The position numbers and the translations under genes are program-made. The notes under the pieces were generated by a model. It saw nothing but the letters and a program-made list of their open reading frames with translations. It was not told the DNA's origin and did no database searches. DNA of 64,000 nucleotides from Apostichopus japonicus. Taxonomy: Eukaryota; Echinodermata; Holothuroidea; Aspidochirotida; Stichopodidae. This document shows, one piece after another, positions 19,801 through 25,800 of the stretch (positions are counted from its first letter, which is position 1; each line of letters begins with the position of its first letter). The stretch covers positions 17,151,918-17,215,917 of the forward strand of contig NC_092570.1 in assembly GCF_037975245.1 (NCBI RefSeq), read 5' to 3'.

Positions 19801-22800
19801 ACTCTTCGGCCTAAAATCGGAAAAATCGGACCGTATTCCGATAACATATCGTTGTAGTGTGACCGGGCCTTAAGACATGATGTGGTGGAACCTTGGGTAC
19901 ATGCTATGTGTCATTCAAATCAGCTACTTTCTTTTCATATCCCCAAATAGTGTTACCTCGTTTAACCTCACATAGTATCCAACCAGGCAACTAGTGCAAG
20001 TTTCCATGGAAACAGTGTGAGGTATTTTTCTCCATGGTTTCTAGGAGGTTGCTATGGTGAAAGGAGGAAACATCAATTTTGTATGAAGCACTTTCATGAA
20101 TCCGTTCATAAGTTTGCAATAAACATTTATGCATGCGATACTTGTCACGGAAAGTTTCCTTACTTTGGGCCCTAGTTCTTTACAAGTGGAAATGAAGAAT
20201 CTATCTAACCATCAAAAATGACATCACATGGTTGAAATATGAAACTATAAGCACAGAGAAATCCTTATTTCTCACTATGTTTGTTTTGAATAATGTTTGA
20301 CTAGATTTCAGAAGACACATATTCAATTAACAGCTTAATTTTGCTATTTTGTTTTCTTTTTAATTTTTCAGGGTCACGATATATATGGATTTGACTTGGA
20401 TGTTTTACTTCATCGCATCAGTGCAAATAAAGTCCCACATTGGTCACGGCTTGGTAGGCTGAAAAGAAGTATCATGCCAAAACTAGCTGTGAGTCCTTCA
20501 TTGATTGATTTGTTATTTGCTAGTAGATTTATTTATTGATTTGTTACTTGCTAGTCCTTTATTGATTGATTTGTTATTAGCTACTATGTTTATTTGTTTG
20601 TTTGTGTTAACTGCAATAACAGTTTTGCTTTTTTGATTGTTTGGTGTCAAATTTGCTCCATTCTATGATATTTAAATATTTATTATCTGTAGCAGATTAA
20701 GATAATGAAACAAATCTGAAGTACTTAAAATATTAGTCACGTATATATTGAAAAAAATATGAAAGTCTAACAAATTTCAAGACAAACTTAAGAAGCAAGT
20801 GCAGTCTGTAGCTATTATAAAATAAAAATGACATATTTATTGCACCATGTGCACATATGAGACAATTTGGTCTGTATTGTTCATAGAATTTATCATTTCA
20901 TGTTTCCAATCTCAATTATATTTGGCCATAAAATGAATATAGCATGTAAGTGAAGGCAAACCACTAAAGTGAAACTTTAAGGAATTGGTGATGGAAAGAA
21001 GAAAAATGGAAGCACTTTTTATCGCTTTGATGAGCTATCCTAAAGGTTATGTCATGTTTTGCTGCCCCAACACAGATTGAAGTGCTGCAATTTTTGTTCC
21101 GTTGATTTTGCTTGAATGCAATAGTACTTAGCTCCTCATGAGAGCAAGTAGTTTCAGCTAGTAGTGCTGGGTTGCCATGGTGAGTAGGATAATCATAAAA
21201 GTGTTCAGATTGACTGAGGCTAATCTATATTTCTGACTCTCTCTCTCTAATAGGGAGGCCCTCAAGGAAGGACGGGTGCATTCGCCGAAAAGAATGCAAC
21301 ATGTGGTCGTCTCATCTGTGACATCAAAATATCCGCTATGGAGCTGATTCGAAGCAAGAGCTACGACCTAAGTCAATTAACCAATCAGCTCTTGAAGAAA
21401 CCGAGACAAGATATACCTTTCGAAGATATCAGGAATATGTATGGGTGAGAAGATAATTCTAACAGCTACGGAAATGTTTTATAAATATCAGTAGAACTTA
21501 ACTGTGGCACCGTCGTTAGTCATATTTAAATCTTTCCTCCCAGGAGATGCATTTAGCATCATCTAATGTATGGTTATGGTTATATATTGTGGTTTGAGTT
21601 CAACTGTACCTTACTAATATACCAATGTGGAATTCATCTGTAAAAATTTTCTTCTGCACTCATTGGATGTATTGAAAGATTTCATAAGAAGAAAAAGAAA
21701 CAGATTTTTTGATGGTTGCGGTTGTACGAACATCTCTATTACATGTAAAGACTAGTAACAGCTTGATGAGGTTGGTTTTTAATAAAAAAGGTGTTTGCTA
21801 GTAATTATATAAGTAAATATATTTCATTTGGAATTTGTATTGTCTTTAGTGTTCGACCGATTGTATGACAATCGGTTTTACCGATTACCGATTATTTCCT
21901 GTGACAATCGGCCGATTACCGATTATTTCAAAATTTTCGTGGAACTGGCCTAATGTATGATTAAGTGTTATGCATGATTACCAACTTCTAGGCCAATACA
22001 ATCAAAGTTGTAAATGAACGACTTAACTTTTCACAGTAAAGATTAATGGAGCAAGTAAAGAACACTGTAATACATACATAGGGCGATGTACGATTATAAC
22101 GAGGAGTCGCAATTTATTGCAATTCCGCCACAACACGGTACTGTACAGACTACAGAAGGGGGGAAATAGTAGCCATTGGCTACGAAATGAAAAACAAAAA
22201 AGTTAGGGACAGGTTTTACAACTGCAATTAAAAACATTATCAGTGTTGCAAGTCCAACGTAAATAAAGTAAAAAGTATATCGGACGTAAATAAAATATTC
22301 GTTATTTCGTTAGCTGATATCGAGATATATAATCTGATATGAAAAAATAATGTGCAGGCCTAAGAGTAAGTTGGGCTGACGTTTCGATCCTAGCAGGATC
22401 GAAATGTAACGCCACATTACTTATAACATATTCTTACACAGGCTCTTTAGTGGATAAGCAGTTTGCTAACAGTTTTATTTTATTATGAAAAATAAAACAA
22501 TCCCGAACGTTGGCTTCAAGTTTTCAATGATTATAAACCATCTGCGCGGTAAAACTTGACGCTTCTCCATTGACTTAACTACATGTGGGAGAAATCACAC
22601 ACTAAAGTCCCATTGACTTTGTCGCGGCGTGTCACTGGAAATCAGACTTGCTTTTAGTCGGTTGCGGTAAGGAGTTTAGTTACTGTTAGCACGTATGGTA
22701 CATAGGAAAAAAAGTTTATAGGGTTTTTCGTAAAAATGTGCGTAAGAATGTTTGCCTAATCAAAAAATACTGTTATGCAGTAGAACTTCTGAGGAATGTC

Positions 22801-25800
22801 GCCAAACGTGTTTATGGATTTTTAGGTGTATTTGGAGCCTTGATTTCATCATTTTATGCCATTTGTAAAATCTTGGGCGCATTTTCTCAACCGTTCTTCA
22901 GCCAGACTAGCCTAATGTACGTAGTTCTCACAATGAACAAAGCCTATTGTTATTGTTTTCACTTTCCAGTTTTCACCTACGGTGATACGGCCAAAGTGGT
23001 TCAAAAGTATACTGATTTGGTGATTATATTTAGTATAGACAATTTTTCTTTCTTATCAATCGTGTAACATGATGACAGGTGTTTTTGTTAGATGCAACAA
23101 GCAAAGTAAAAAAATACGTCGTTCCCCTAAGCTTATCGCGGGTATACTGTGTTGTTACGCGGGTATACTGCATGATGTTAACTGCCAAAGCTGGATAGGG
23201 TATCGAACAGCATTTGTACAAACTCGCGCGAGGGACTTACGATACCGTTACACGGTAGAGTAGCGCACCTTCCCCGGCTGTGAATAGCACTGAATCGAAT
23301 GATCAAATTTTTTTCTCCCGTTGTGGTTGTGGTGTATCAAAAGCGCGGAAAATACAATCCTTTATGTCGAACGTAATAATCGGTTCCAACTAATCGGTAG
23401 CGCAATGGATTTTGCCGATGCCGATTATTTACCGATTGTCTGATAATCGGCCCGATGCCGATTGTCTAACCGATTATCGGTCGAACACTAATTGTCTTCT
23501 TTGTTTCCAGAGCTTCACGAGACTTGGCTCATTTTGTCGATCACACTCTCATGGACACGAACTTCATTCTGCAGATAATGTGCGAGCTGAACGTCCTACC
23601 GTTGGCGATGCAACTCACAAATATTTGTGGTAACGTCATGGTGAGTTCTGGATTGTAATCGTATAGTTAAATATTATTGGCTGAAAGCAGCCTATTGTGT
23701 CTACATAGTTTTTGTGTTGAAGGGGAGGGTAGGGTAGGGGGGGTTTGCTGCCTCACATAAAATTCTCTTGAAATGAAACAATTGTTTTATTATTGCAGGG
23801 ATGTAACCACAGATCTTAAAAAATCTTGAGAAAGCATGTTGTTGCTTTTCAAGCTGTTCTATCAACTCTTGTGATTTAACATACTTCATAGTGGATGTTC
23901 TTAGCTTACAAGAAATGAATGTAAAGTCATTGATGTCTCGAGGAGTGTTTTTTACTTATTCGGCTGCAAAAATGAATGGAGTAATGAGATTACATTTTAC
24001 AGGATGTGTTATTACATGCTATTTTAGGGTACAGAATATATATCTATCCCTGAGAATTGAGGTAACTAGATGTTGTGTATCAAAGTGATTTCAAAAGAGC
24101 GCCCTCGATAGCAGTTGTGCTTTATGTAAATAAAGTGCTATAATCCAGAGTATCACATCAAAGTATCCACATTCTTTTCAAAGAAAAATCCAACACTGAT
24201 ATGAGTAGTAATGCTCATTAGAATTGTTTCCACTTTCTTCACTCAGTCGCGTACATTGATGGGAGGCCGTTCGGAGCGAAACGAATATCTACTGCTGCAT
24301 GCGTTTCACGAAAAGAACTTTATCTGTCCCGATAAAGAATTCAAAAAGAAGACGCCTGTTGCTGTAAGTATGACTGTATTTCTATTAATAGAGAAATCAT
24401 ATATTCATGGTTGCTATGGAAATAGAAAAGTCTTAATTAAAAGTAAGGATATCCAGTCCTGCATTGTACATGGCATTGAAACTGCCAAATGTTTATGTGA
24501 AACACATCAAGTCTAAAAGGCTTACACTCTTCCACATGCACAATAGGATAACAAACATACCCCATGTGAATCTGTATGTAAAATATACATACTTTTGCCC
24601 TATATATCTGTGTGGCATGTGATAATTGGGGTTGTGGCCTTTGTTTTTCTGTCATTTTTTTCTGAATGTCGAAATTGAGACTTAAGGAAGACCCTTTAAA
24701 TCGATGGTCTAATATCTAACTGGACATTTCTCTTGTTTCAAAATGCTGTCAGTTTTCTTATGTTGAGAAAATATTCACAGTCTGATGCTTTCTGAAGACA
24801 GAGCTTCTTTCACTTACGTAATGTAAAACTCCTGGTGAAAAGTTTCATTAATAAGCCATACAAATTATTGTTGAATATTGGAGAAAAAGTTATCATTCAT
24901 GAGAATGGTGCTTCATTTACTCAATGATATCGATGTGTGCTTCAATGTTAGTAATACATTTTTTTGTTTTATCTGAAATTGTTTTTATGAAGGATGTTGA
25001 GAATGACATGGAGGGTGGAGTAGAAAGACCAGCAACCAGTCGAAAAGCTCGAAGGAAACCGGCATACTCTGGTGGCTTGGTGTTAGAACCGAAAAAAGGT
25101 AAGCAACACACACATTTATGATTATTCTACCTTCAAAATATCGATACCACTGAGTGATGTCACCATGTCTATCAGGCTGTTGGTCAACTTGTCTGTATGT
25201 TTCAATTTCTTTGCAGGTTTCTATGATCAGTTCATCCTCCTTTTAGATTTTAACAGTCTCTACCCATCAATAATCCAAGAATACAACATCTGCTTCACCA
25301 CCATCAGTAACTCTCCGAAAGAAGAAGAGGTCAGTTTATAAAGCCTCTAGGCTTTCTCCAATTTCTCATTATCCTATTAAATCCTTCTACTCCATTTCCT
25401 ACCTCTGCCCACAGCTGTAAGGGACCCTCAGGGCATCTGCCAATGTTCAGAATCCTCAAGCTACTTTAATAGTGTCGTTGTTAAGATATTGTCTGAAAGA
25501 TAAGCATATGGTAATGAACAAAGTAAATTCATTTTTCCTTTAGCCATTAGTTGTTGCAGAAATGGAAACAAAAGCTTAACCCAGGTAAATGTATTAATGA
25601 GTTATGACTAACACTTGGAATAGGTATTTCAACATAGTGATAAACATAGCTTGCTTTGAATCTACTTCATGAATATTCAGCAAACTTCAATTGAAGTATT
25701 TGTTTTTAAAATGGATTGTTATGGTTGTTTCCCAAAGCCAAACATAGTATGTTGCAAGTTGTAAATTTCAGTCTTATAATTTTCAATAAGTAATGCTAAG

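What the first reader, a model, noticed from the sequence alone, without database searches (positions are those of the whole stretch)
21839..23515. hAT transposon abuts the exon 21 acceptor of POLA1 and may supply its branch point
The element's right end (23490) is only 20 bases from exon 21 (23511). The 8-bp target duplication ATTGTCTT (23491-23498) now forms part of the pyrimidine tract before TTTCCAG. The ancestral sequence upstream of this tract was moved 1.64 kb away, so the branch point must now come from the transposon or be very distant. The terminal part of the element contains GTCTAAC (23464-23470), a good match to the animal branch consensus, 42 bases from the acceptor. A transposon end co-opted as the branch site of an essential gene would be a clean case of splicing domestication.
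Basis: partly seen in the sequence, partly recalled or inferred. Interest (0 to 1): 0.72.

Follow-up and report, generated by a model that had tools for sequence, protein, structure and literature searches.

The report
Transposon-made branch site before POLA1 exon
A jumping-gene fragment sits 20 bases before an exon of an animal DNA-replication gene, has pushed the old splicing signals away, and its own end joined to the copied target bases spells a good replacement branch site; whether the cell uses it is untested.

Summary
A 1,644-bp DNA transposon without a recognisable transposase (21847-23490; 15/15 terminal inverted repeats TAGTG...CACTA; 8-bp target duplication ATTGTCTT) ends 20 nt before a POLA1 exon (23511-23640) that aligns to solved POLA1 chains. 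It abuts the surviving pyrimidine tract and would form in either orientation. By U2 pairing the filled site's best candidate beats 25 of 30 other introns in the window; the reconstructed empty site is matched or beaten by 28 of 30. GTCTAAC (A at -42) is second choice. A third route: the two ends pair in the pre-mRNA, hide CTAAT and bring the ancestral branch point back to about -42. Controls temper this: random sequence put in the same place equals or beats the native site in 180 of 300 trials, and four other AGs in the intron score above the true acceptor. No RNA, second copy, sister species or empty allele could be reached, so use, fixation and benefit are untested. Transposon-derived branch points are known; this is a variant.

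The parts
21445..23510 (+). POLA1 intron that holds the element (GTGAGA ... CCAG), 2,066 nt; about 414 nt before insertion
21823..21827 (+). TTCAT, likely ancestral branch site (A 21826; -33 in the empty site, now 1,685 nt from the exon)
   Evidence: only yUnAy in the last 45 nt of the reconstructed empty site; inference that it was used
21839..21846 (+). left copy of the target duplication ATTGTCTT
21847..23490 (.). non-autonomous hAT-like (or other 8-bp-TSD) DNA transposon, 1,644 bp, TIRs 15/15, no transposase found
21847..21849 (+). TAG at the left end; with the duplicated TTGTCTT it makes a weak decoy acceptor (exon would start at 21850 and stop after 6 codons)
   Evidence: score 1.2; 1 of 30 native acceptors scores as low
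23401..23508 (+). stretch without AG before the acceptor (AG exclusion zone 110 nt, longest of 30 introns compared; next 84)
23464..23470 (+). GTCTAAC, second-choice branch site inside the element (A 23469, -42)
23476..23490 (+). right terminal inverted repeat ATCGGTCGAACACTA
23488..23492 (+). CTAAT, best-placed branch site: element CTA + host duplication AT; A 23491, -20
23491..23498 (+). right copy of the target duplication, upstream part of the pyrimidine tract
23511..23640 (+).

Best explanation
A non-autonomous, hAT-like transposon inserted inside the pyrimidine tract of a POLA1 acceptor, 20 nt before the exon. The 8-bp duplication kept the whole tract and the AG next to the exon but moved the ancestral branch point 1.65 kb away. 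Most likely splicing continues because the right junction itself is a branch site: the element ends in CTA and the duplication begins AT, giving CACTAAT with its adenosine at -20, directly followed by the tract; the AG-free tail of the element leaves the true AG as the first one downstream. GTCTAAC at -42 may serve as a second branch site. Shown: the anatomy, the motif, its position, the AG-free tail. Inferred: that U2 uses it, that the exon is still included, that the allele is common or fixed.
For: CTAAT at -20 and CTAAC at -42 are present, whereas the empty site has no CTRAY and one yUnAy (TTCAT, -33) in its last 45 nt. CTAAY occurs in a random 31-nt span of this window with frequency 0.056, two of them with 0.0018. 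Best U2 pairing at -18 to -45: filled -4.1 kcal/mol (A 23490; the CTAAT A 23491 gives -3.8), equalled or beaten by 5 of 30 native introns; empty +0.2, equalled or beaten by 28 of 30. AG exclusion zone 110 nt, longest of 30. Of 600 in-silico insertions of this end at -18 to -37 before 30 native acceptors, 94 make CTAAY at the junction and 531 reach the native pairing strength, identical for both orientations; random tails: 1 and 180 of 300. Skipping the 130-nt exon shifts the frame. Published branch sites lie mostly at -20 to -40 with consensus YTNAY (passages of PMC9636908) or 18-37 nt upstream (passages of PMC8531310).
Against: No RNA evidence. A usable branch site is easy to get: 180 of 300 random tails are as good as native by the same measure, so the motif need not be special. 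Native introns here are enriched for degenerate yUnAy (12 at -18 to -25 against 5.6 expected) but not visibly for CTAAY (0 in that bin, 0.45 expected). Only 3 of 30 introns, this one included, have CTAAY at -15 to -45. In folds without a span limit the end is in the TIR stem and A 23491 is unpaired with probability 0.18-0.26. Four of 103 AGs in the intron score above the true acceptor (10.9, 10.2, 9.8 and 8.1 against 7.5), three of them inside the element, and one (22442) has a good donor 225 nt on. Perfect TSD and TIRs fit a young, possibly rare or harmful allele.
Confidence: 0.5

Rival explanations
1. The branch point is the element-internal GTCTAAC (A 23469, -42); the junction CTAAT is not used.
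For: Perfect CTAAC, inside the AG-free stretch; in folds without a span limit its A is about 0.9 unpaired while the junction is paired.
Against: Farther than most branch points in the passages seen; U2 pairing -3.0 against -3.8/-4.1 for the junction; in the four span-limited folds its A is unpaired with probability 0.12-0.22; 21 nt that are not a pyrimidine tract separate it from the tract.
Confidence: 0.17
2. The element's two ends pair in the pre-mRNA (15-16 bp perfect stem), loop out 1.6 kb, hide the left TAG and the junction CTAAT, and bring the ancestral branch point (A 21826) back to an effective distance of about 42 nt.
For: TIR pairs have probability 0.80-1.00 in both folds without a span limit; a passage of PMC9636908 states that stem-loops can bring distal branch points closer to the acceptor.
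Against: Any element with perfect TIRs would fold so; with spans up to 300-400 nt the stem does not form; the ancestral site is weak; pairing over 1.6 kb must compete with co-transcriptional local structure.
Confidence: 0.12
3. The insertion damages the acceptor: a rare or recent allele with exon skipping or use of element acceptors, kept in the sequenced haplotype by chance.
For: 8/8 TSD and 15/15 TIR identity fit a young insertion; AGs at 22970, 22442 and 22902 in the element score 10.9, 9.8 and 8.1 against 7.5 for the true acceptor; 22442-22666 could be a 225-nt pseudoexon, with stops in frame. Published parallel: the canine merle SINE near an acceptor, whose tail length shifts splicing to a cryptic acceptor (passages of PMC7349775).
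Against: The true acceptor, tract and a strong branch motif are all intact and adjacent; the POLA1 exons aligned here are open, though that says nothing of this allele's age.
Confidence: 0.2

Closest known systems
BLOC1S2 MIR/AluSp-derived exon of Old World monkeys (PMC6822395, passages seen)
   Same: Transposable elements supply predicted branch point sequences to a host intron.
   Different: There the elements also make a new alternative exon with its splice sites; here only the branch site of an existing exon would be replaced, and the motif is made by element end plus target duplication.
Introners (PMC9860276, passages seen)
   Same: DNA transposons whose splice signals are completed by the target duplication.
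   Different: Introners create new introns and recruit 5' or 3' splice sites from the duplication; here an existing intron is invaded and the shared signal is the branch site. No intron is gained.
Canine merle SINE in PMEL (PMC7349775, passages seen)
   Same: Insertion at the intron/exon boundary pushes the branch site away from the original acceptor.
   Different: There splicing is shifted to a cryptic acceptor and a phenotype results; here a ready branch site abuts the kept tract.
Distant branch points with long AG exclusion zones (PMC1431707, passages seen)
   Same: An unusually long AG-free stretch before the acceptor (110 nt, longest of 30 here).
   Different: Here the length comes from the element's AG-poor subterminal repeats, and a close branch site is also present.

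Membership tests
hAT superfamily (non-autonomous) | 8-bp target site duplication | tested here: met
   ATTGTCTT twice, 8/8; hobo shows 8 bp in 1,196 of 1,198 sites (passage of PMC3276498). P elements share it (same table).
hAT superfamily (non-autonomous) | duplication consensus nTnnnnAn | tested here: inconclusive
   T at position 2 fits; position 7 is T, not A (consensus).
hAT superfamily (non-autonomous) | short TIRs beginning YARNG | tested here: inconclusive
   15-bp TIR begins TAGTG, which fits; I recall YARNG as the hAT motif, but the one passage found assigns it to the P superfamily (PMC2820524).
hAT superfamily (non-autonomous) | transposase, or an autonomous relative with a hAT transposase | tested here: not met
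   Six frames: no Pfam match above cut-off. An exact 20-mer of the right end gave 0 matches in viral contigs and genome contigs, collections without animal genomes, so an autonomous relative could not really be sought. Absence in the element itself is expected of a non-autonomous copy; hence 'hAT-like' only.
Metazoan branch site (YTNAY) | motif with A at about -18 to -44, no AG between it and the acceptor | tested here: met
   CTAAT, A at -20; CTAAC, A at -42; no AG between.
Metazoan branch site (YTNAY) | lariat formed at that A | not testable with these tools
   No RNA data.
Introner | insertion creates a new intron that is spliced out whole | tested here: not met
   Left end offers only a weak acceptor-like TAG and the element lies inside an intron of 414 nt that was there before.

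The most novel reading that the evidence does not exclude
Transposons of the TAGTG...CACTA class carry a ready-made half branch site: the right end reads CACTA whichever way round they insert, so any insertion whose duplication starts with A plus a pyrimidine makes CTAAY at the junction (94 of 600 simulated insertions). Such elements could invade acceptor regions with little harm, and this POLA1 exon would be a case where junction, kept tract and AG-free tail together rebuilt, and by motif strengthened, an acceptor of an essential gene.
Probability: 0.3. Interest if true: 0.7.

Novelty: new variant of a known kind. Interest (0 to 1): 0.45.

Why it matters
If the junction is the branch site, it shows a simple route by which an insertion in one of the most constrained parts of an intron repairs itself: duplication keeps the tract, element end supplies the branch motif. 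It gives a testable rule (end CACTA plus duplication starting AY) for which insertions near acceptors should be tolerated, in any genome with such elements.

Tried and rejected
No whole genome is held, so other copies, an empty allele and sister species could not be compared. An exact 20-mer of the right end found 0 matches in viral contigs and genome contigs; neither collection is of animals. The scan of this window found no second such insertion; the other window matches to the element are short, mainly to a shared palindromic repeat at 35467-35661. No tRNA and no Rfam match. Left-junction decoy acceptor (TTTAG|TG at 21849) was considered as a main outcome and set aside: score 1.2, with 1 of 30 natives as low. 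Use of the AG at -110 gives stops within 14 codons. Paper searches: which joined branch point/site with transposon or hAT terms, found 0 papers, which is no proof of absence (only open-licence PMC full text, exact words).

Weak points of my own set: of the acceptors compared, P_23 and P_34 are less certain; K_2 was placed wrongly and corrected; P_27 was missing (30 introns with this one) and added from then on (30 without this one); one search also used 30 natives. In the donor list at least 24368 and 33720 are doubtful picks, so donor scores are rough. The U2 pairing measure is crude and my own.

Full report
What is there. The window holds an animal-type POLA1 gene: translated stretches between 18229 and 36020 align to DNA polymerase alpha catalytic subunit chains of the PDB, followed by stretches I read, from recall and without a search, as an importin-alpha gene (about 49-55.5 kb) and the start of CASK (about 62.9 kb). 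The exon of the finding is 23511-23640 (130 nt), bounded by CAG|AGC and ATG|GTGAGT; joined to the preceding exon it is open in frame. Its intron, 21445-23510, holds a 1,644-bp element at 21847-23490 with 15/15 TIRs and an 8/8 duplication ATTGTCTT. A strict scan of 64 kb for such a structure returned this one. Six frames of the element gave no Pfam family above its cut-off, so it is non-autonomous. The label hAT is likely but not proven: duplication length fits hAT and P elements alike, the duplication fits nTnnnnAn at one of two fixed positions, and the YARNG terminal motif, which I recall for hAT, is ascribed to P elements in the one passage found (PMC2820524).

What the insertion did. Joining the flanks gives the empty site ...ATTTCATTTGGAATTTGTATTGTCTTCTTTGTTTCCAG. 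In its last 45 nt the only yUnAy is TTCAT (A at -33), and its best U2 pairing is +0.2 kcal/mol, equalled or beaten by 28 of 30 native introns. The insertion kept ATTGTCTTCTTTGTTTCCAG next to the exon and moved everything upstream 1,652 nt away.

The replacement. CTAAT straddles the junction: CTA is the element's end, AT the start of the duplication; the branch adenosine would be the first base of the host duplication. The best U2 pairing is -4.1 (A 23490) and -3.8 (A 23491), against -3.0 for A 23469; 5 of 30 natives equal or beat -4.1. The tract follows at once. No AG lies between 23401 and the acceptor's own AG: the AG exclusion zone is 110 nt, the longest of 30, next 84; the element's last 90 nt are AG-free in this orientation, 52 in the other. 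Because the TIRs are perfect, the CTAAT would also form with the element flipped.

How far chance goes. CTAAY is seen in 5.6% of 31-nt spans of the window and two in 0.18%, but the element end is given, so the only local accident is a duplication starting AY: 14.1% of window dinucleotides, 94 of 600 simulated insertions. In those simulations 531 of 600 reach the native pairing strength, against 180 of 300 with random tails. So the element end is better than random sequence but a usable branch site would often have been found anyway. In 30 native introns yUnAy is enriched at -18 to -25 (12 against 5.6 expected) and stays above expectation to -49, but CTAAY is not visibly enriched; this species probably uses a degenerate consensus, as most animals do (recalled), so a perfect motif is not needed.

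Structure. In two folds without a span limit the two TIRs pair (0.80-1.00); then A 23491 is 0.18-0.26 unpaired and A 23469 about 0.90. In four folds with span limits of 100 to 400 nt the reverse holds: A 23491 is 0.52-0.92 unpaired and A 23469 0.12-0.22. The pyrimidine tract is largely paired in five of the six folds (mean unpaired 0.17-0.29; 0.53 in the sixth), which counts against reading any of them literally. The paired state would bring the ancestral branch point to about 42 nt from the exon and hide the left TAG, a real rival.

Risks to the exon. The left junction makes an acceptor-like TTGTCTTTAG with the ancestral branch site 24 nt from the would-be exon, but it scores 1.2, as low as the lowest native of 30. 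Four other AGs of the 103 in the intron score above the true one: 22970 (10.9), 21544 (10.2, host part), 22442 (9.8), 22902 (8.1). The stretch 22442-22666 has a donor of score 9.1 behind it and stops in frame. Native acceptor scores are a small-sample model of my own.

Against known cases. Transposons that supply predicted branch points are in print (MIR/AluSp in BLOC1S2, passages of PMC6822395); duplications that complete splice sites are in print (introners, passages of PMC9860276); insertions that displace the branch site from an acceptor are in print (merle SINE, passages of PMC7349775). A branch site made by a DNA-transposon end plus its duplication I did not find, which searched open-licence full texts by exact words only.

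Verdict. Observation confirmed; reading partly supported and improved: the junction CTAAT is the leading candidate. Domestication is unproven; the allele could be young, rare or harmful.

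Noticed in passing
22358-22488 and 35467-35661: A palindromic repeat around GATCCTAGCAGGATC inside the element is shared (82-93% over pieces of 43-104 nt) with a copy in a later POLA1 intron; it may be a nested insertion.
   Followed up: partly
22442-22666: Possible pseudoexon in the element: acceptor score 9.8, donor score 9.1, 225 nt, with in-frame stops.
   Followed up: partly
15477-17035: Large tandem array, unit 49/99 bp, about 32 or 16 copies, in a POLA1 intron region; other arrays at 10458-11479 (400 bp), 31860-32329, 37249-37522 and 38172-38822.
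   Followed up: no
33575-33598: Another POLA1 acceptor (exon at 33599) has two CTAAT motifs, at -14 and -46, and an 84-nt AG-free stretch, the second longest of 30.
   Followed up: no
49062-62920: Downstream of POLA1, stretches that read like importin alpha (armadillo repeats) and the N-terminus of CASK (MADEDLLFDDVYELCEVIGK); names from recall.
   Followed up: no
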